In this document: piece after piece, positions 35,749 to 62,171 of the stretch
Layout of the letters: the number at the start of each line of letters is the position of its first letter
Position numbering within the stretch: the first letter of the stretch is position 1
From: Arthrobacter sp. NEB 688
GTDB lineage: Bacteria; Actinomycetota; Actinomycetes; Actinomycetales; Dermatophilaceae
Direction: 5' to 3'
DNA: 64,000 bases
Assembly: GCF_013201035.1 (NCBI RefSeq)
Contig: NZ_CP053707.1
Location: forward strand, 3,658,001-3,722,000
Program-made: the position numbers and the translations under genes
The notes under the pieces: model-generated
The model's database searches: none
What the model was told of the DNA's origin: nothing
What the model saw: only the letters and a program-made list of their open reading frames with translations

Positions 35749-36024
35749 TCAGACGGCGCGCTTCTTCAGCTTGCGCCGCTCGCGCTCGGACAGGCCGCCC
35801 CAGATGCCGAAGCGCTCGTCGTTGCCGAGGGCGTACTCGAGGCACTCGGAGCGCACCTCGCACGAGACGCAGACCTTCTTGGCCTCGCGGGTGGAGCCGC
35901 CCTTCTCGGGGAAGAACGCCTCGGGGTCGGTCTGCGCGCAGAGCGACCGCTCCTGCCAGGACAGGGCCCCCTCGTCCGGCTCCGGTGAGCCGAGCATCCC
36001 CTCGACCAGAAAGAGCTCGTGCAT
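35749..36024 (-). CDS. whiB: WhiB-family iron-sulfur transcription factor (WhiB2/WhmD-like)
   Basis: 91 aa. Four cysteines (C29, C52, C55, C61) in the C-Xn-CxxC-x5-C pattern bind a 4Fe-4S cluster. GIWGGLSERERRKLKK (from residue 73) is the turn and basic tail that contact sigma factor and DNA. The location beside fbiA/fbiB and DUF3499 matches mycobacterial whiB2 (division and septation). ATG at 36022-36024 with GGAGGA six bases upstream. A clear promoter lies 60-95 bp upstream. Confidence 0.95.
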   Translation of the reverse strand: MHELFLVEGMLGSPEPDEGALSWQERSLCAQTDPEAFFPEKGGSTREAKKVCVSCEVRSECLEYALGNDERFGIWGGLSERERRKLKKRAV

Positions 36025-36085: not shown

Positions 36086-36117
36086 GAATTACACGCGTGT
36101 CATGCCACGCTCGTCAA
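36086..36117 (-). promoter_or_regulatory. whiB promoter with palindrome ACACGCGTGT
   Basis: On the minus strand TTGACG (36112-36117), an 18-bp spacer and TGTAAT (36088-36093) form a -35/-10 pair. The palindrome ACACGCGTGT (36091-36100) overlaps the -10 edge and may be an operator. The 15-mer ACACGCGTGTAATTC (36086-36100) recurs with one mismatch upstream of the wall-hydrolase gene at 50485. Confidence 0.6.
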
Positions 36118-50484: not shown

Positions 50485-52092
50485 TCAGCGCATGCGGGCC
50501 TCGACGGCCTTCCAGGTGAGCGTCGCGACGACCCCGGTCTGCGCGAGGCGCGCCGACTTCTGGGCCGCGCGGACGGCCGCTTCCGTCTTCGGGCCGAAGG
50601 ACCCGTCGGCGGTGATCCGCAGCGCCTTCTGCAGCGCGACGACGGAGCTGCCGTGCGCACCCCGGCGGAGCACGGTGTTCCAGTAGCGCAGCAGCGGGTG
50701 CTCGGCGCGCTCGATGGCGTCCCAGGTGCGGCGGTCGACGACCCCGGTGGCCGACAGCGTCGCCGAGCGCTGGAACGAGACGACCCGCGCCTGGGTGGCC
50801 GGGCCGAAGCGGCCGTCGGTCGAGAGCCCGCCGAGGGCCTTCTGGAGGGCGCGGACGGCGCTGCCGCTCGAGCCCAGGCGCAGGGTGGACCCCTTGTAGG
50901 CGGTCAGCTCGGTGGCCGGCGTCGTCGAGGTCGGCGCGCTCGACGGCGGCCGGGTGGTCACGGGGGCGGTGCTGCCCGACCCACCGGTGGAGGAGCCCCC
51001 GGCGAGGACCTTCCAGTCCTTGGCGTCGATGACGCCGTCGACGGTCAGGCCCTTGGACTTCTGCCAGGCCGTGACGCGGGCCAGCGTCTTCGGGCCGAAG
51101 GACCCGTCGACGGTCAGCCCGCCGATCGCCTTCTGCATCGCCGAGACGGCCTCGCCGCGCGACCACAGCCGCAGGGTGACCTTGGCGTACTTGTCCAGGG
51201 GCGAGGTGGACGGCGCCGGCGTGCCGGAGCCGCTCGTCGGCGCGCCGATCAGCGCGTTCCAGACGCGGCTGTCGACGATGCCGTTCTGCGTCAGCCCCTT
51301 GCTCTTCTGGTAGGCGAGGACGCGGGCCTCCGTGGCGGGGCCGAACGAGCCGTCGACCGTCAGGCCGCCGATCGCCTTCTGCAGGACCTCGACCGCGATG
51401 CCGCGCGAGCCCTTGCGCAGGGTGACGTTGACGTAGTCCTTGGGGTCGCGCGACGTCGGCTGCGAGCCGCCGGGAGGGCCCGTCAGGTAGGTCGTCACGG
51501 CCTTGCCGGTCCACCACGACGTGGTCTTGACGGCGCCGTCCCACGTGAAGGACAGGTGGATGTGGTCGGTGTGCGGCGAGGAGCCGGTGTAGGCCTGCCA
51601 GCCGCGGTCCGGCGCCCAGGCCTTCCAGATGCGCTTGTTCCAGATGATGTAGTTGATGCCGAGGCGCCGGGCGTTCGCGCCCGAGCGGCCCTCGGAGTCG
51701 GCCATCGCGAGCCACCGGGTCACGGCGTTGCCGAGGGCGAGGTCGTTCGCGTTCTTCGCGTTGAGCATCCAGTCGAGCGCGCGGCCCTCGCCGTGCTCCT
51801 GGTCGCACTTGCGCAGGACGCCGTAGACGTGGGCGCCGTAGGTCGCGTTGAGGAGCTTGGCGAACGCGACCGGGCCCGGCTGGTCCTCGGTGAGGCAGAG
51901 CGTGCCCGGCTGGTACGGCGGCGCGACGTCGAGGGCGCTCGGCAGCGGCTTGGACGGCTTGGGGTAGGGGATGCTCGCGGCCTGGGCCGAGCCCGCGACG
52001 AGCGGGAACGCGATGACGGACGCCGAGAGGGCGCCGAGGGCACGCGTGGGAAGGCGCCGGGGCGCCGGGGAGTCAGGGCTGGGCAGGGACAC
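50485..52092 (-). CDS. Secreted wall protein: M15-like metal-site domain plus four peptidoglycan-binding repeats
   Basis: 535 aa from GTG 52090-52092, with GGAG seven bases upstream. A signal peptide ends near VAGSAQAAS (residue 39). Residues about 60-200 carry QEHGEGRALDWML (H100, D107) and SSPHTDHIHLSF (H174, H177, H179), a zinc-site pattern like VldE/M15-type D,D-peptidases. Four repeats of the PG_binding_1 type follow, each with the LQKALGGLxxDGxFGPxT pattern, separated by Ser/Thr/Pro linkers. It probably cleaves or holds peptidoglycan. Shares upstream motifs with the amidase and whiB genes. Confidence 0.85.
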   Translation of the reverse strand: MSLPSPDSPAPRRLPTRALGALSASVIAFPLVAGSAQAASIPYPKPSKPLPSALDVAPPYQPGTLCLTEDQPGPVAFAKLLNATYGAHVYGVLRKCDQEHGEGRALDWMLNAKNANDLALGNAVTRWLAMADSEGRSGANARRLGINYIIWNKRIWKAWAPDRGWQAYTGSSPHTDHIHLSFTWDGAVKTTSWWTGKAVTTYLTGPPGGSQPTSRDPKDYVNVTLRKGSRGIAVEVLQKAIGGLTVDGSFGPATEARVLAYQKSKGLTQNGIVDSRVWNALIGAPTSGSGTPAPSTSPLDKYAKVTLRLWSRGEAVSAMQKAIGGLTVDGSFGPKTLARVTAWQKSKGLTVDGVIDAKDWKVLAGGSSTGGSGSTAPVTTRPPSSAPTSTTPATELTAYKGSTLRLGSSGSAVRALQKALGGLSTDGRFGPATQARVVSFQRSATLSATGVVDRRTWDAIERAEHPLLRYWNTVLRRGAHGSSVVALQKALRITADGSFGPKTEAAVRAAQKSARLAQTGVVATLTWKAVEARMR

Positions 52093-52156: not shown

Positions 52157-52179
52157 GTCACAGGAGTCACATCCGTCAC
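52157..52179 (-). promoter_or_regulatory. Three GTCAC direct repeats upstream of wall hydrolase
   Basis: GTCAC occurs at 52157, 52166 and 52175 (9-bp steps; GTGAC in the transcribed sense). CTCCTGTGAC, 65 nt before the start, recurs 67 nt before the amidase start. Response-regulator boxes look like this. Confidence 0.45.
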
Positions 52180-52242
52180 CGCCGGATCACCGGGCACATC
52201 TGTTCTCCCATTGGGCACGGGGGTGGTGCAAGCGGTTCCGCT

Positions 52243-52257
52243 GAATTACAAGCGTGT
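52243..52257 (-). promoter_or_regulatory. whiB-like motif upstream of wall hydrolase
   Basis: Minus-strand ACACGCTTGTAATTC matches the whiB promoter element ACACGCGTGTAATTC at 14 of 15 positions in the same orientation. It contains a TGTAAT -10 candidate. The 211 bp 52093-52303 hold this motif, the GTCAC repeats and nothing else I can identify. Confidence 0.45.
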
Positions 52258-52303
52258 ACTTGCGGCCGCGGACCCGAACGGCCGACCGGCGCCGGGTGCG
52301 CGC

Positions 52304-54505
52304 TCACGCGTCGCCCGCGGCGTCGAGGACGCCCGCGGACACCGACACCGTGCCGCCGAGCCCGACGACCCGCTCGAGGCCCGGCATCGACTGCAGGGCC
52401 GCGACGGTCGCCGGCGGCAGCGCCGTGCCGCGGGTGAGGAGGATCGGCCGGCCCAGCGAACCGGCGGTCAGCGCGTCGGTCAGGGCGCGGTCCTCGCCGC
52501 TCGAGAGCGACACCGCGGTGACGGCGCCCAGGCGCGGGAGGTAGTACGCGGCGACGGCCGCGGCGACCTCGTAGCGGTCCGCGCCGTCCAGGCGGCGCAC
52601 CGACGACAGCCGCGAGCGCAGGTCGCTCTCGACGGCCGCGCCCACCGACGGGGTGCCCCCGACGATCCGGGCGGCCGGCACGCGCAGGTCGGTCAGGGCC
52701 GCGACGGCGGCGTCCGGCAGCCGGTCCCCGCGGGTCAGCAGGACGGGCTCGCCGACGGCCCCGGCCGGTCCCCCGGCCCCGAGCGCGTCGGCCAGGGCCC
52801 AGCCCGAGGCCACGACGACCGCGCCGACGGGGCGCTCGGCCGCGACCCGGCGGGCCACCGCCGCCGAGACCTCGAAGCGGTCCCGGCCGCCGAGGCGGGT
52901 CACCGCGAGGCCGCGGTCGCGCAGCTCGGTGAGGACGGCGTCGTCGACGGTGGGCGAGCCCCCGACGACGACGGCCCGGGTCAGCGAGCCGGCCCGCCGC
53001 GCGAGCTCCGCCCGCGTCTGGGTCGGCAGCTTCCCCTGCTGGGTCAGCAGCAGCGGGGCCCCGAGCGCCTGGGCCAGCGGCCCGGCGACGGCGGCGTCCG
53101 CGCGGCCGGCGTCCTCACCGCTGGCGATGACGACCGTGCTCGCGCCCTGGTCGTGCGTCGCGGCGAGGGCCTCGGCCACGGCGTAGCGGTTGCTGCCGTC
53201 GATGCGCTCGGTCGGGCGCGCGACGTAGCTGGAGTACAGGCCGAGCCGCGCCTGGAGCGAGGCCCCGCTGATGCTCGCCCGCGCCCCGGAGGACGAGGTG
53301 GCCGTCGCGGTGCGCACCGCGCCCGAGGCGTAGCGCGAGGAGAGGTCGAGGGAGGCGACGTCGGCCAGGCCGAAGACGGACCCGAGCGTCGAGGTGGCCG
53401 GGCGCGTCACCCACGCGCGCCGGGGGTTGCTCGAGCGCAGGCTCCAGTGGTCGTCGACGCTGCGCAGGTAGGGCACCGCCGAGGACCACACGTCCTCGCT
53501 GTTCTGGGTGCGGCCACCGGTCGAGGAGGCGTAGAACGCCTCGATGACCGACCCCTTGTAGGTGACGACGTAGCCCTGGGTGCCCGAGCCCGCCGCGCGG
53601 ACCGCGGCCTGCCAGCTCTTCCAGTACGGCAGGTCCCCGGAGCCCGGGTAGCCGCCGAACACCTGGCTCTGGACGGTGTCGTAGACGTGGCAGGCGCACG
53701 AGCTGCGCACGCCGCCGCGCACGGCGGTCAGGGCGTAGCCGCGGGCCGCGGCGGCCTGGGCCTGGAGCGTGGCCGCGGGCCACGACCACGGGACCTCGCG
53801 GATGTAGTCGAGGTACTGGTCGTGCAGGCGCATCCGGCCGACGACCTCGAGCGTCGAGGAGCCGGGCGTCCGGCTGACGGCGATGCTGCCGTCCTTGTAG
53901 CGCGCCCCGCCGGTCGAGACGAGCGTCCTGGTGTCGTCCCAGTAGACGGTGGCCGTCGTGCCCGTCGCGGTCGTCGTGGGGCTGCACCCGGCGCACGAGA
54001 CGGCGACCCCGCTGCCCGACGCGGTGACCGTCGCGGTCGTGCCGGCGGGCGCGGTGAGGGAGGTGCCGCCGGCGACGACGGTCATCGTGCCGCCACCGGC
54101 CGCGAGCGCGGAGGTCGAGAAGGTGCTCGACGAGGTCTGGTGCTGGAGGTTGACGAGGACCTGCGCGGTGTCGTCGACGGTCGTGTAGTCCGTGCCCGAG
54201 TAGTAGTGGCGAAGGATCTGCGCGGCGCTGTAGCCGTCGCGCGCCATCTCCATCGCGCCGTACTGGCTCATCCCGACGCCGTGCCCCCAGCCGGAGCCCG
54301 AGAGCGTCCACGTGGAGGAGGCCGCGGCCGTGCGGGCCGCCGGGGCGGCGACGGCGGGGGCCGCGCCGTCCGGCGCGGTGGGCGCCGGACGGGCCTGGTC
54401 CACGCCCCACGGCACGGTGCCGGCGAGCGCCGCCGGGGCCAGGCCGCCGGTCAGGGCCAGCGCGGCCGTGGCCGCGACGAGCGGCCGCAGGAGCCGGCGG
54501 CTCAC
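52304..54505 (-). CDS. SpoIID/LytB-domain protein with three cell-wall-binding repeats (CWB2)
   Basis: 733 aa. A signal peptide ends near LAPAALAG (residue 29). Residues about 65-430 form a SpoIID/LytB-like domain: GSGWGHGVGMSQYGAMEMA, YLDYIREVPWSWPAATLQAQ and EAFYASSTGGRTQNSEDVW. SpoIID cuts glycan strands in sporulating bacteria; homologues in non-sporulators are called amidase enhancers. The C-terminal 290 residues are three CWB2 repeats (GSNRYAVAEALA, GGRDRFEVSAAVA, DGADRYEVAAAVA). GTG start overlaps the amidase stop in GTGA, so the two are co-translated. Confidence 0.9.
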   Translation of the reverse strand: MSRRLLRPLVAATAALALTGGLAPAALAGTVPWGVDQARPAPTAPDGAAPAVAAPAARTAAASSTWTLSGSGWGHGVGMSQYGAMEMARDGYSAAQILRHYYSGTDYTTVDDTAQVLVNLQHQTSSSTFSTSALAAGGGTMTVVAGGTSLTAPAGTTATVTASGSGVAVSCAGCSPTTTATGTTATVYWDDTRTLVSTGGARYKDGSIAVSRTPGSSTLEVVGRMRLHDQYLDYIREVPWSWPAATLQAQAAAARGYALTAVRGGVRSSCACHVYDTVQSQVFGGYPGSGDLPYWKSWQAAVRAAGSGTQGYVVTYKGSVIEAFYASSTGGRTQNSEDVWSSAVPYLRSVDDHWSLRSSNPRRAWVTRPATSTLGSVFGLADVASLDLSSRYASGAVRTATATSSSGARASISGASLQARLGLYSSYVARPTERIDGSNRYAVAEALAATHDQGASTVVIASGEDAGRADAAVAGPLAQALGAPLLLTQQGKLPTQTRAELARRAGSLTRAVVVGGSPTVDDAVLTELRDRGLAVTRLGGRDRFEVSAAVARRVAAERPVGAVVVASGWALADALGAGGPAGAVGEPVLLTRGDRLPDAAVAALTDLRVPAARIVGGTPSVGAAVESDLRSRLSSVRRLDGADRYEVAAAVAAYYLPRLGAVTAVSLSSGEDRALTDALTAGSLGRPILLTRGTALPPATVAALQSMPGLERVVGLGGTVSVSAGVLDAAGDA

Positions 54506-56877
54506 GGGGTCACCGCCGCGCGCAGGTAGCCGCCGGTGCGCAACGAGACCGTGACGGGGGCGCCGAGCACGGTGAGCGAGGTCGGGGCGGCGTCGGCGCG
54601 CAGCCACGCCACGACCGAGGGGCTCGTCGCGTCCTGGCGCACGTAGAGGGTCGGCCGGCCGAGCTGGCCGCCGGAGAGGGTGTCGGCGAGCCCGGTGGTC
54701 TCCCCCGACGCCACGAGGACGTCGGTCGTGGGCACGCCGGCCCCACGGGCCCACGTCGCGATGTTCGCCGACAGGTCGTACCGGTTCGCCCCGGCGACGC
54801 GCGTGGCCGAGGGCAGCGCGGTGAGCACCGTGTCGGGCACGGTGACGGCGCCACCGGCCACGACGGTCCGTCGCACCTTGAGGGTGGTGAGGACGGCGCG
54901 GGTGGCGGCCGGGACGGTCGCGTCCACGAGGAGGATCGGGCGCCCGAGGGCGGTGGCCGGGCCGGAGAGCGCGAGACCGTCGGCGAGGGCGGTCTGCCGG
55001 CCGCTCGCGACGAGGACGTCCGGCGTGGCGGCTCCCCCGGTCATCGTCCGGGCGACGTTGGCCGCCACCTCGTACCGGTTGGCCCCGCCGATGCGGGTCA
55101 CCGTGGCGCCGAGCGAGGTCAGCTCGCGCACGACGGCCGACGACACCGAGGGCTCGCCGCCGACGACGGTCACCTGGGTGACCTTGCGCCGGACGATCTC
55201 GGCCCGGGTGGCCGACGGCAGCTTGGCGGCGTTGGTCAGCAGGAGCACCGCGCCCTGCTTCCTGGCCAGCGGCGCCGCGACGAGGGCGTCGGCCATCGCG
55301 TTGGCCTGACCGTTGGTGAGGACCACCTTGCGCGTCGCGGCGTCCCGGACCTTCGAGGCGGCCACGGCGACGCCGAAGCGGTCGGAGCCCTCCAGCCGCG
55401 GGGGGCAGGCGCCCTGCGGCGCACCGCTCGTCGCGGCGATGGTCACGGGCCACGCGGCCGACGAGGTCGAGGTCGCCCCCGAGCCGGTCGTGCCGGTCAT
55501 CGTCACGAGGTAGTCGCCGGGCAGCGCGAGGTCACCCGTGGAGTCGCGCCCGTCCCAGCGGACGGAGAACCCACCGCCGGCGCTGCGCCGGCCCGTGAGG
55601 GTGGCGACGGTGCCGGCGCAGGGGCTCGTCACCGTGATCGTCCACGACATGGCCTCGCTCGCCTTCGCGGAGACGTCCGCCCCCGAGCCGCCGTAGGACC
55701 ACGTGTCCCGGCTGATCGAGGGGGCGAAGAGCATCGTCCCCTCGTACTGGCGGGCGAGCGTGCGGATCTGCGGGAGCTTGGCGTAGAGCTGCGCGCCCGG
55801 GCAGGACGTCGCGTAGACGTCCCGGTGGCCGATGACCGTGGGGTGCGTCCCGAAGCCGTCGAGGGTCGTCGTCCCCGTGGGGTCGACGTGGGCCAGCCCG
55901 AGCTTCCAGGCGATGAGCTTGGCCTGCGCGGTGACGACGGCCGAGGGCACGGACGCGGAGGTGAAGTCGCCCATGACCGAGGTGCCGAAGCTCTGGCTGT
56001 TGACGCCGATCGCGTGGGCGCCGATGACCGGCCGGTCCATCCCGCCGTAGCGGCCCTCCCACGTGCGGCCGAACCGGTCGACGAGGAAGTTGTAGCCGAT
56101 GTCGCCCCAGTCGCGGCCGTTGGTGTGGAAGACGTAGATGCCGCGGATGATGCTCGGGACCTCCGCGGAGGAGTAGGTGTTCGAGCCGACCGTGTGGTGG
56201 ACGACGGCCGCCTTGACCTCCCCGTAGCCGAGGGTCGCGTGACGGATGCTCTCGTCGGCGCCCCAGTCCTGGCGGGTGCGGATGGTCGGCACGACCCCGG
56301 CCGCCGAGGCGCTGCCGGCGGGGGCGGAGGTGACGGCCTCGTCGGCGGCGGTCGTCGTCGCGTCGACGACGTCGAGGCGGGCGCGGGCGCCGCCCTTCGC
56401 GTCGCCGAGGACCCGGGCCTGGACGGCGTCCGCGGTCGAGATCCAGGGCGCGGTGCCGCCGCGCTGGCCGCGCTGCTCGGTGCTGCCGGCGTCGGGGCCG
56501 TCGTCGGACTCGGCCTCGAGGGACTGCCAGGCGCCCCAGGCGCCGGCCCGCTCCTCGCGGATCTCGACGCGGGCGTTCGCCGCGACCGCGCCGTCCGGCC
56601 AGGTCACGCCGACGACGTGGGCGCGGCCCCCGATGTCGACCTGCCGCGACTGGGCCGCGGGAGCCGTCGAGGCGGCGGTGGAGCGCTCCTGCGCCGACGA
56701 CGTCGTCGCCGCGGCCACGGGCGCCGTCGGGGCGAGGTCGTAGGAGCGCAGGGCGGCGGGGACGGGCTTCGGGGCGGCCGCCGCCCCGGTCCCACCCGAG
56801 GTGAGGACGGGGACGACGGTCGCCACGGCCACGGCCACGACGAGGGACAGGGGACGCCGAAGGGCAGCAGAGGTCAT
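54502..56877 (-). CDS. N-acetylmuramoyl-L-alanine amidase with three cell-wall-binding repeats (CWB2)
   Basis: 791 aa from ATG 56875-56877. Signal peptide to about residue 35. Residues about 200-370 are an amidase-2/PGRP domain with the zinc ligand region VVHHTVG (H227/228), VIGHRD (H351) and SCPGAQLY (C359). An Ig-like segment follows near 420-500. The last 290 residues are three CWB2 repeats (EGSDRFGVAVAA, GGANRYEVAANVA, AGANRYDLSANIA). It cleaves the stem peptide from muramic acid while held to a wall polymer. First gene of the unit with the SpoIID protein. Confidence 0.92.
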   Translation of the reverse strand: MTSAALRRPLSLVVAVAVATVVPVLTSGGTGAAAAPKPVPAALRSYDLAPTAPVAAATTSSAQERSTAASTAPAAQSRQVDIGGRAHVVGVTWPDGAVAANARVEIREERAGAWGAWQSLEAESDDGPDAGSTEQRGQRGGTAPWISTADAVQARVLGDAKGGARARLDVVDATTTAADEAVTSAPAGSASAAGVVPTIRTRQDWGADESIRHATLGYGEVKAAVVHHTVGSNTYSSAEVPSIIRGIYVFHTNGRDWGDIGYNFLVDRFGRTWEGRYGGMDRPVIGAHAIGVNSQSFGTSVMGDFTSASVPSAVVTAQAKLIAWKLGLAHVDPTGTTTLDGFGTHPTVIGHRDVYATSCPGAQLYAKLPQIRTLARQYEGTMLFAPSISRDTWSYGGSGADVSAKASEAMSWTITVTSPCAGTVATLTGRRSAGGGFSVRWDGRDSTGDLALPGDYLVTMTGTTGSGATSTSSAAWPVTIAATSGAPQGACPPRLEGSDRFGVAVAASKVRDAATRKVVLTNGQANAMADALVAAPLARKQGAVLLLTNAAKLPSATRAEIVRRKVTQVTVVGGEPSVSSAVVRELTSLGATVTRIGGANRYEVAANVARTMTGGAATPDVLVASGRQTALADGLALSGPATALGRPILLVDATVPAATRAVLTTLKVRRTVVAGGAVTVPDTVLTALPSATRVAGANRYDLSANIATWARGAGVPTTDVLVASGETTGLADTLSGGQLGRPTLYVRQDATSPSVVAWLRADAAPTSLTVLGAPVTVSLRTGGYLRAAVTP

Positions 56878-56935
56878 GAGGGGGTCCAGAGGCAGGGGGT
56901 CGGACGCAGTCAGGGTGCCACAGTGGACCCCACCG

Positions 56936-56954
56936 TTCACTGGCGTCACAGGAG
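56936..56954 (-). promoter_or_regulatory. GTCAC-type repeat upstream of amidase gene
   Basis: TTCAC (56936) and GTCAC (56945) lie 9 bp apart. The 10-mer GTCACAGGAG (56945-56954) is identical to 52157-52166 upstream of the other wall hydrolase, at a similar distance from the start codon. Confidence 0.45.
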
Positions 56955-59545: not shown

Positions 59546-61276
59546 TCAGAAGGAGTCCTCGAGGCGCGAGGCCTCGTCGCCGTCCTCGTCGACGACGTAG
59601 TCGACGAGCTGCTGGCGCACGGCGGTCGAGACCGACGGCACCCCGCCGAGCACGACGACGTGCGCGGGCCGCAGCCGCTTGAGGGCGTCGTGGACCGGCT
59701 CGGGCACGGCGTCGCGGTCGACGAGCAGCAGCGGCATCCCGCTCTGCGCGGCGACGAGCGTTCCGGTGACGGCGTCGGCCGGGGCCGACGCGACGTAGAC
59801 GACGTCGACGTTCTCGCGGTGGTGCTCGGACGCCGCGACGGCGACCTCGGCCGGCGACGGGCTGAGGTGGCGCTGCACGCGCACCCCCGCCGCCTCGGCG
59901 AGGACGTCGGTGACCGACGCCGCGAGGTCGGCCCGCTCGACGAGCAGGTGGACCTCCGAGGGGCGCAGGGCCCGCAGCGTGTCGAGGACCTCGGGGTCGA
60001 CCCCGTCGGTGCCGACGACGAGGACGGTGCCCCCGACCTCGACGGCCCGCAGGGCGGCCGAGAGGGCCGCGGCCTCGTCACGGGCCGGCACGACGAACAC
60101 CGGTCGGCCGGTGGGGGCCTCGTCGCGCGCCAGGGTCGCGACGACGGTCTGCGCGTCGACCCCCGGGACGCGCCGGGTGTCCAGGCCCGCCTTCTCGAGC
60201 GCCTCGACGACGGAGTCGCCGACGCCCTGCGGGTCGCCGACGACGACGACCTCGTCGGGCGCGAGGCGGCGCAGCTCGGCGAGGACGACGGGCGGCACGG
60301 ACCGGCTGCGGACGAGCAGCAGCGGGGAGTTGGAGCGCACGGCGGTGGGGACGGCGGCCAGCGCGACGGCGAGGTCGGTGCCCCCGGCGACGAGGACGCG
60401 CTCGGGGCGCGGCTCGACGGCGCGCGCCGACGTCGTGGCCGAGACGGCGTAGCGGTCGCGGCCGGCCCAGCGCTCGACGCCGGCGACCTCCTGCTCGATC
60501 TCGATCGGCCCGATCGTCCCGCGGCGCCCGGCCTCCTCGTAGGCGTCGACGACGTCGTCGACGGGACCGTCGGCGATCAGCTCACCGCGGTCGAGCCAGA
60601 TCGCGCGGTCGCACATCTCGCGGATCGTGTTCGCCGAGTGCGAGACGAGGAAGACCGTGCCGGCCTCGCCGCGCAGCTCCTCGATGCGCTGGGCGCTGCG
60701 CTCGCGGAAGGCGGCGTCACCGGTCGAGAGCGCCTCGTCGATGATGAGCACCCCGGGGCGCGCCGCGGTCGAGATGGCGAAGCGCAGCCGCGCCGCCATC
60801 CCCGACGAGTAGGTCGACATCGGGAGGTGGATGGCGTCGCCGATGTCGGCGAAGTCGGCGATCTCGTCGAACTTCGCGTCGACCTCGGCCTTGCTCAGGC
60901 CGAGCGCCTGCGCGCCGATGTAGACGTTGCGCGCGCCCGAGAGCGACTTCTCGAGGACGGCGTTGACGCCGAGCAGGGCCGGCGAGCCGTCGGCCCACAC
61001 GTGCCCGCTCGTCGGCGGGATGAGCCCGGCGATGGCGCGCAGGATGGTCGACTTGCCCGACCCGTTGCGCCCGATGATGCCGATCGACTGGCCGTGGTAG
61101 CCGACGAACGACACGTCCTTGACGGCGTGCACCTGCCGCGGGGCGCGGTCGCCGCGCGAGAGCATCCCGCGCAGGCCCGGTGGCCGCTCGCCGGTGCGGG
61201 CCCGGCTGCCGAAGACGCGGTAGACGATGTCGACGTGCGAGACGACGACGGAGGGGGTGCGCTCAGCCGCGCCCAT
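59546..61276 (-). CDS. Wzt-type polysaccharide ABC-transporter ATPase fused to three CWB2 cell-wall-binding repeats
   Basis: 576 aa from ATG 61274-61276, with GGGAGG six bases upstream. Residues 1-250 form the Wzt/TagH-type ATPase: GRNGSGKST (69-77, Walker A), STYSSGMAARLRFA signature (154-167), VLIIDEA (176-182, Walker B) and VSH (211-213). Residues about 268-560 hold three repeats of the CWB2 fold (ERWAGRDRYAVSATTSAR, VVVVGDPQGVGDSVVEA, VVVLGGVPSVSTAVRQQ). No signal peptide or transmembrane helix is seen, so this module should lie in the cytosol, where Wzt proteins usually carry a glycan-recognition domain. It overlaps the Wzm gene by 14 bp. Confidence 0.9.
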   Translation of the reverse strand: MGAAERTPSVVVSHVDIVYRVFGSRARTGERPPGLRGMLSRGDRAPRQVHAVKDVSFVGYHGQSIGIIGRNGSGKSTILRAIAGLIPPTSGHVWADGSPALLGVNAVLEKSLSGARNVYIGAQALGLSKAEVDAKFDEIADFADIGDAIHLPMSTYSSGMAARLRFAISTAARPGVLIIDEALSTGDAAFRERSAQRIEELRGEAGTVFLVSHSANTIREMCDRAIWLDRGELIADGPVDDVVDAYEEAGRRGTIGPIEIEQEVAGVERWAGRDRYAVSATTSARAVEPRPERVLVAGGTDLAVALAAVPTAVRSNSPLLLVRSRSVPPVVLAELRRLAPDEVVVVGDPQGVGDSVVEALEKAGLDTRRVPGVDAQTVVATLARDEAPTGRPVFVVPARDEAAALSAALRAVEVGGTVLVVGTDGVDPEVLDTLRALRPSEVHLLVERADLAASVTDVLAEAAGVRVQRHLSPSPAEVAVAASEHHRENVDVVYVASAPADAVTGTLVAAQSGMPLLLVDRDAVPEPVHDALKRLRPAHVVVLGGVPSVSTAVRQQLVDYVVDEDGDEASRLEDSF

Positions 61277-62171
61277 AGGTGGCCTCCCCACGCCAGAAGA
61301 AGACGAGCCCGCCCCCGAGCAGCACGACCGCCCAGATCGCCGAGGCGATCCACGGCATGAGCTCGAGCGGGGTCTCGGCGAGCAGCGACTGGCGCACGGT
61401 CTCGAGCTGCAGCGCGAAGGGCTGGTACTCGAGGACGTGCCCGACCGAGGGGGCGCGCGCCGTGTAGTGCGAGATCGAGAAGAAGACGCCGCTCGTGTAG
61501 CGCAGGAGGCGCAGGAGCAGCGGGATGAGGTTGGCGAGGTCGCGCGAGCCGTGGGTGATGCGGGCGGCGATGAGCGCGAGCCCGATGACCTGGACCAGCT
61601 GCAGCGCGACCGCCAGCGGTAGCAGCAGCCAGGTCCACGTCGGCCGCTCCCCGCTCACGAGCATGAGGACGACGAGCACCCCGAACGCCGGGAGCGCCGC
61701 GAGCACCTCGGTGACGCCGACCGAGACCGGCAGGACCGCCCGCGGGAAGCGCAGCGCGCGCACGAGCCCGGTGTTGCCGGTGATCGCCCGGGCCCCGCTC
61801 GAGATGACCGAGCCGCTGACGCCGAAGACGATGACGCCGATCGAGAGGAAGCCGATGAAGTTGTCGACCCCGCGCCGGGTCCCCAGCAGCACCCCGAAGA
61901 TGAGGAAGTAGCTGAGGATGAGCAGCATCGGGTTGAACACCGACCAGAGCCGGCCGAGCCGGTTGTTCTGGTAGCGCGCCTCCGTGCGGCCCTGCGAGAG
62001 GGTCAGCACGAAGGCGCGCCGCTGCCAGAGGTCGCGGACGTACTCGCCGAACGGGGGCCGTGCGGTGAGCAGCGACAGCCCGTGGCTGCGGGCGAGGGCC
62101 TCGGCGTCCGCGTCGCTCAGGGCACCCGCCACGGGTGCCGGGCGGCGGGCCTCGTCAGAGGCGGTGGGCAC
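61263..62171 (-). CDS. Wzm/TagG-type polysaccharide ABC-transporter permease
   Basis: 302 aa with six hydrophobic segments of the ABC-2 type. EARYQNNRLGRLWSVFNPML and RALRFPRAVLPVSVGVTEVL are close to the Wzm/TagG consensus, with YTSGVFFSISHYTARAP in the later helices. With the Wzt protein it should export a lipid-linked polysaccharide. GTG start at 62169-62171; overlaps the dehydrogenase by 17 bp. Confidence 0.9.
   Translation of the reverse strand: MPTASDEARRPAPVAGALSDADAEALARSHGLSLLTARPPFGEYVRDLWQRRAFVLTLSQGRTEARYQNNRLGRLWSVFNPMLLILSYFLIFGVLLGTRRGVDNFIGFLSIGVIVFGVSGSVISSGARAITGNTGLVRALRFPRAVLPVSVGVTEVLAALPAFGVLVVLMLVSGERPTWTWLLLPLAVALQLVQVIGLALIAARITHGSRDLANLIPLLLRLLRYTSGVFFSISHYTARAPSVGHVLEYQPFALQLETVRQSLLAETPLELMPWIASAIWAVVLLGGGLVFFWRGEATYGRG

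What the first reader, a model, noticed from the sequence alone, without database searches (positions are those of the whole stretch)
52157..56954. Same GTCAC-type repeat at equal distance before both wall-hydrolase genes
GTCACAGGAG occurs at 52157 and 56945, 64 and 67 bases before the respective start codons. Half-sites repeat at 9-bp steps (three at the first locus, two at the second). 9-11-bp direct repeats are typical of OmpR-family response regulators such as MtrA, which controls wall hydrolases in actinobacteria.
Basis: partly seen in the sequence, partly recalled or inferred. Interest (0 to 1): 0.5.

Follow-up and report, generated by a model that had tools for sequence, protein, structure and literature searches.

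The report
Nine-base-step operator arrays before cell-wall genes
The repeats look like real control sites, part of a family of 9-base-step arrays in front of cell-division and wall-remodelling genes in this bacterial genus; their spacing fits a small BldC-like protein better than the proposed regulator MtrA, but which protein binds them is unproven.

Summary
In detail: GTCACAGGAG lies at 52157 and 56945, 64 and 67 bases before the starts (52092, 56877) of two minus-strand wall genes, on the opposite strand to both. In same-genus genomes a 9-bp-step GTCACA pair lies upstream of the first gene in 11 of 12 loci and of the second in 10 of 11; other spacings give 0-4. In related genomes GTCACA...GTCAC pairs pile up at steps 9 (41 of 97) and 18 (22 of 97), not 11 (6 of 97), and units not used for selection keep G1 (98 of 122) and C5 (108 of 122). 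These are arrays of about 2-4 nine-bp units, found before sepF, wag31, ftsK, mreB, rpf, mcdR-like and hydrolase genes (mostly named by eye). Published MtrA boxes have an 11-bp step where stated, so the MtrA reading is only partly supported. My best guess is a 66-residue BldC relative (Rv0500A type) binding head-to-tail. MtrA stays a serious rival: half-site and gene set match, and a mycobacteria-like oriC holds a 9-bp pair. The first gene also has a conserved ResR/McdR-type palindrome at 52244-52261.

The parts
52157..52165 (+). array unit 1, GTCACAGGA
   Evidence: conserved register
52166..52174 (+). array unit 2, GTCACATCC
   Evidence: conserved
52175..52183 (+). array unit 3, GTCACCGCC
   Evidence: conserved
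52184..52192 (+). degenerate unit 4, GGATCACCG (G1 and C5 kept)
   Evidence: unit profile
56936..56944 (+). amidase array unit, TTCACTGGC (one mismatch in GTCAC)
56945..56953 (+). amidase array unit, GTCACAGGA
52244..52261 (+). ResR/McdR-type palindrome AATTACAAGCGTGTACTT
   Evidence: 1 mismatch to AATnACAnnnnTGTnATT; AATTACANNNNTGTANTT in 10 of 11 aligned genomes
50485..52092 (-). PG_binding_1/PG_binding_3 protein, putative wall hydrolase, GTG start 52092
54502..56877 (-). Amidase_2 protein with CWB2 repeats, ATG start 56877
52304..54505 (-). SpoIID/LytB-domain protein with CWB2 repeats, start overlapping the amidase stop

Best explanation
The two sites are operators of one cell-division and wall-remodelling regulon. 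Each is a head-to-tail array of 9-bp units (GTCACAnnn; G1 and C5 most constant), about 2-4 copies. Shown here: the arrays, their 9-bp register, their conservation and their gene set. Inferred: they are bound by the small winged-HTH protein of the Rv0500A type (66 aa, G000:C1:1449018-1449215), a BldC relative that polymerises head-to-tail, one protomer per 9 bp, and most likely represses by covering promoter or leader DNA; it would also control its own gene and the mcdR/ResR-like gene. At the first window gene a ResR/McdR-type palindrome adds a second input.
For: Geometry: in seven same-genus genomes (150 of 287 hits listed) the GTCACA subset gives 41 of 97 at step 9, 22 of 97 at step 18 and 0-6 at each other step from 6 to 17. 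Own genome: 8 of 18 at step 9 over 15 possible steps. Units not used for selection: G1 98 of 122, C5 108 of 122, against 30 and 43 of 102 out-of-register 9-mers (no locus dropped). BldC binds 9-bp direct repeats head-to-tail in variable number (PMC5859096 passages; PMC6428758 passages). The best two of three PDB hits of the Rv0500A-type protein are BldC (6amk, 6ama; E about 2e-4); BldC residues E16, R22, V23, R30, I40, G44 have identical counterparts in this genome's protein in that alignment (residue roles). Its own promoter keeps GTCACnnnnGCCnCTAnnST in 21 of 30 order-level loci; at step 9, 11 of 35 promoters score 10 or more of 12, other steps 0-3. Co-occurrence in 119 genomes of the order: gene present (75) 216 hits against 64 control; absent (36) 49 against 44; weak or paralogue only (8) 12 against 7; Mann-Whitney p 9e-6. 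The M. tuberculosis orthologue binds the rv2390c promoter by EMSA (PMC6375644 passages); that rv2390c neighbours rpfD is recalled.
Against: No binding data for this protein on GTCACA. BldC's consensus AATT(N3-4)(C/G) is not the array sequence; BldC's DNA-contacting K26 and H46 are not conserved (alignment); NCBIfam BldC scores 27 bits against a cut-off of 77. G085 (13 hits) and G294 (4) have arrays but no gene found; families f3, f6, f14 have the gene without excess, f15 only 6 against 1. MtrA presence was not measured there and ancestry was not corrected for. The own-promoter element is absent in 9 of 30 order loci by the strict pattern and in 3 of 3 mycobacteria-like genomes. In three mycobacteria-like genomes step 11 is raised too (13 of 91, against 21 at step 9), a perfect 9-bp pair lies in an oriC where MtrA is known to bind in M. 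tuberculosis, and beyond sepF the mycobacterial hits gave no coherent gene set. One Streptomyces-like genome shows no step-9 peak (4 of 34 listed). This genome's own sepF array is degenerate (9 of 12 matches). Several sites lie inside genes or lack a clear target.
Confidence: 0.47

Rival explanations
1. MtrA boxes: in this lineage the response regulator MtrA binds GTCACA half-sites at a 9-bp rather than 11-bp step, possibly as more than a dimer, and controls wall hydrolases and division genes.
For: MtrA encoded. Half-site equals the GTCACAgcg of M. tuberculosis oriC/fbpB boxes, described as two direct repeats (PMC4285127 passages). Target classes overlap the M. tuberculosis MtrA regulon (sepF, wag31, rpf, ripA). 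A mycobacteria-like oriC has a perfect 9-bp pair.
Against: Stated MtrA spacing is 11 bp or close; no 11-bp peak in the genus; more than two units; T2, invariant in S. venezuelae MtrA sites (passages), is kept in only 38 of 122 unselected units; no pair in the mtrA promoter; abundance tracks another gene.
Confidence: 0.34
2. Another DNA-binding protein, such as a different response regulator, MerR-type or WhiB-type factor, binds the arrays.
For: The MtrA-model search listed 48 matches in the genome, about 17 of them near full length, and PF12728 finds 7 HTH_17 matches; the arrays sit in front of the ResR/McdR-like gene itself.
Against: Published ResR/McdR and FtsR motifs do not resemble a 9-bp GTCACA array; no candidate with 9-bp geometry other than BldC was met in the papers seen.
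Confidence: 0.17
3. Chance repetition of a short word without function.
For: The 10-mer with up to two mismatches is not enriched in the window; GTCAC pairs at any spacing are common in coding DNA.
Against: Spacing-specific, strand-specific conservation in relatives, genus-wide 9/18 peaks and unselected units.
Confidence: 0.02

Closest known systems
MtrA boxes (MtrAB two-component system of actinobacteria)
   Same: half-site GTCACA; direct repeats; wall-hydrolase and division target genes
   Different: step 9 instead of 11; up to about four units; unselected units keep G1 and C5 rather than T2 and C5
BldC operators of Streptomyces (whiI, smeA-ssfA)
   Same: 9-bp direct repeats in variable number; candidate protein is a BldC relative by sequence
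   Different: unit GTCACAnnn, not AATT(N3-4)(C/G); candidate is the Rv0500A-type relative, below the NCBIfam BldC cut-off
ResR/McdR (Rv1830) operator AATnACAnnnnTGTnATT
   Same: palindrome at 52244-52261 upstream of the first gene, one mismatch, conserved
   Different: a separate site, not the GTCACA array; the window search found none upstream of the amidase

Membership tests
MtrA box | GTnAC / GTCACA half-site | tested here: met
   motif from PMC4285127 passages
MtrA box | two half-sites at an 11-bp step | tested here: not met
   peaks at steps 9 and 18, none at 11 in the genus; published spacing
MtrA box | MtrA encoded in the genome | tested here: met
   NF040689, 379.8 bits, cut-off 300
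MtrA box | binding by phosphorylated MtrA | not testable with these tools
   needs EMSA, SPR or ChIP
BldC-type operator | 9-bp direct repeats in variable number | tested here: met
   geometry from PMC5859096 passages
BldC-type operator | AATT(N3-4)(C/G) unit | tested here: not met
   unit frequencies; consensus
BldC family protein (candidate binder) | score above the curated BldC cut-off NF033787 | tested here: not met
   27 bits against 77; BldC structures are nevertheless its best PDB hits
BldC family protein (candidate binder) | head-to-tail oligomer on DNA | not testable with these tools
   several interface residues identical, others not (alignment, residue roles)
ResR/McdR operator | AATnACAnnnnTGTnATT palindrome | tested here: met
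   one mismatch at 52244; conserved

The most novel reading that the evidence does not exclude
A near-invariant small BldC relative (Rv0500A type; 66 residues here), seen from mycobacteria-like and Streptomyces-like genomes to Phycicoccus, is a master regulator of actinobacterial cell division and wall remodelling. It binds head-to-tail on 9-bp GTCACA arrays at sepF, wag31, ftsK, mreB, rpf, mcdR-like and hydrolase genes and at its own promoter, and some sites credited to MtrA may be its sites.
Probability: 0.4. Interest if true: 0.82.

Novelty: new variant of a known kind. Interest (0 to 1): 0.6.

Why it matters
It defines an operator class by geometry (9-bp arrays) that marks a coherent division and wall regulon, and it gives a direct test separating MtrA from a scarcely studied BldC relative. 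If the latter is right, part of the wall-hydrolase control credited to MtrA in actinobacteria would need another look.

Tried and rejected
Rfam scan of the window: no family at gathering threshold, so no known riboswitch explanation. FtsR as binder: its published motif AACCCTAAAGTAAAGGTTGAGGGTA does not resemble the array. ResR/McdR as binder of the arrays: its motif is a palindrome, though it fits a separate site. The 44 GTCACNNNNGTCAC matches were not used as a regulon, because GTCAC pairs are common at many spacings (335 matches over steps 5-19); the GTCACA subset separates better. The built-in reversed-pattern control is weak, so other spacings served as the main control. No TAnnnT -10 was found within 190 bases upstream of either window gene, so where the arrays sit relative to those promoters is unknown.

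Rows dropped before counts: one search used the 150 listed of 287 hits (six genomes whole, G007 in part). One search used 34 of 51 hits of one Streptomyces-like genome and none of the other's 52. One search skipped eight loci (L144, L149, L152, L156, L250, L265, L276, L280); six of them hold a site, and repeats the count with all of them. One search shows 8 weak or paralogue-only genomes apart but pools them with 'absent' in the Mann-Whitney test; 'present' means E at or below about 3e-13. In one search G001 counts twice for the first gene (two contigs); G002 (first gene), and G001b and G008 (second gene), were missing or too short; G008 has no amidase match either. The misses are G004 (first gene, 9 of 12) and G007 (second gene, 9 of 12).

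Full report
What is there. The window lies in a 4.08-Mb genome of genus g1. GTCACAGGAG is exact at 52157 and 56945. Both neighbouring genes lie on the minus strand: a protein with four PG_binding_1 stretches (start 52092), and an Amidase_2 protein with CWB2 repeats (start 56877) whose stop overlaps the start of a SpoIID/CWB2 gene. The first array sits between the end of the SpoIID gene (52304) and 52092. It reads GTCACAGGA GTCACATCC GTCACCGCC GGATCACCG; the second reads TTCACTGGC GTCACAGGA.

Conservation. I fetched the regions around these genes in relatives and scored every step from 6 to 15 within 200 bases upstream. For the first gene, 11 of 12 loci (11 genomes, G001 twice) have a pair with at least 10 of 12 matches at step 9 on the strand opposite the gene; other steps give 0-4. 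For the amidase it is 10 of 11, other steps 0-3. The distance to the start varies, so equal distance is not the rule.

Spacing and array length. In the own genome GTCACA-N(0-14)-GTCAC has 18 matches, 8 at step 9, none at 11. In seven related genomes (150 of 287 hits listed) the GTCACA subset gives 41 of 97 at step 9, 22 at 18 and 6 at 11, while the GTCACT subset (53) is flat. Units not used for selection still show G1 in 98 of 122 and C5 in 108 of 122, against 30 and 43 of 102 out-of-register 9-mers (the first version, dropped eight loci and gave 91 and 98 of 110). The sites are therefore arrays of about 2-4 nine-bp units.

Gene set. Arrays lie in front of genes that I name by eye unless a family call is cited: sepF, wag31/divIVA, ftsK, mreB, ftsZ (once, G042), an Rpf-domain protein (NCBIfam RpfC 73 bits, below its cut-off), phoH-like, an Rv0996-like membrane protein (site inside the 3' end of the preceding rimJ-like gene), LysM proteins, small membrane proteins, and the second MerR gene of the operon that also holds ftsR (FtsR itself confirmed, NF050798, 246.9 bits, cut-off 150), which I take by gene order to be ResR/McdR. 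Some sites lie inside genes or have no clear target (for example L149, L276, L280). The own genome's sepF array is degenerate (9 of 12). In three mycobacteria-like genomes the sepF promoter carries a GTCAC pair at step 9 (3 of 3); genome-wide their steps peak at 9 (21 of 91), 11 (13) and 18 (11). Their other hits looked at gave no coherent set, but one lies between dnaA and dnaN. One Streptomyces-like genome shows no peak (34 of 51 hits).

Which protein. The MtrA step is 11 bp or close wherever I found it stated (passages of PMC3353115, PMC6265350, PMC11215152, PMC13189361). The original oriC/fbpB footprint paper is not held, so the step in those boxes is unknown to me. BldC uses 9-bp direct repeats head-to-tail (passages of PMC5859096 and PMC6428758). 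The genome encodes a 66-residue relative whose best two of three PDB hits are BldC. Its recognition region is nearly identical from mycobacteria-like and Streptomyces-like genomes to this one. Its own promoter keeps GTCACnnnnGCCnCTAnnST in 21 of 30 order-level loci, but in 0 of 3 mycobacteria-like ones. By eye the TAnnnT there could be a -10 with the array in the spacer, and the ResR/McdR-like promoter looks alike. In 119 genomes of the order, array hits exceed the control where the gene is present (216 against 64, 75 genomes) and not where it is absent (49 against 44, 36 genomes); p 9e-6 without phylogenetic correction. G085 (13 hits) and G294 (4) are exceptions, and families f3, f6 and f14 have the gene without excess.

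Second input. Upstream of the first gene's array, as the gene is read, lies AATTACAAGCGTGTACTT (52244-52261), one mismatch from the McdR motif (PMC9040748 passages; with up to two mismatches 0.01 matches expected in the window, 3 found). AATTACANNNNTGTANTT is kept in 10 of 11 aligned genomes (G001 differs). A second one-mismatch site (36087) lies upstream of a WhiB-like gene beside an fbiA-like gene (named by eye). McdR acts on whiB2 in mycobacteria; the fbiA neighbour there is recalled.

Verdict. The MtrA attribution is partly supported: right kind of genes and half-site, different spacing. I favour the Rv0500A-type protein at 0.47 (0.48 before the recount, lowered because the own-promoter element proved absent in the mycobacteria-like genomes), MtrA at 0.34. 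In the listings and passages I saw from ten searches of an open-licence library I met no description of these 9-bp arrays as operators of that protein.

Noticed in passing
window 36087-36104, gene 35749-36024 (-): ResR/McdR-type palindrome AATTACACGCGTGTCATG upstream of a WhiB-like gene divergent from an fbiA-like gene (gene names by eye).
   Followed up: partly
window 59546-61291 (-): ABC-transporter ATPase carrying C-terminal CWB2 (cell-wall-binding) repeats, two stretches: an odd place for a repeat that the two wall genes here carry on what look like exported proteins.
   Followed up: no
G000:C1 1342293, 1792133, 2235342, 2620462: A near-identical 21-mer GTCACACGCGTATCGGGTCAC at four places, also in G003 and G005: apparently a different repeated element.
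   Followed up: no
G000:C1 3316094-3316136 (L141): Tandem 19-bp repeats GTCACAGCGAGTACACCCC / GTCACAGTAAGTACACCCC outside the called genes.
   Followed up: no
L235 (mycobacteria-like G209, between dnaA-like and dnaN-like genes): Perfect 9-bp pair GTCACAGCCGTCACACCG soon after the end of the dnaA-like gene, relevant to MtrA binding at oriC.
   Followed up: partly
L322, L323 (G001): G001 has two contigs with the first gene at the same identity and with the same best array upstream: duplication or assembly artefact.
   Followed up: no
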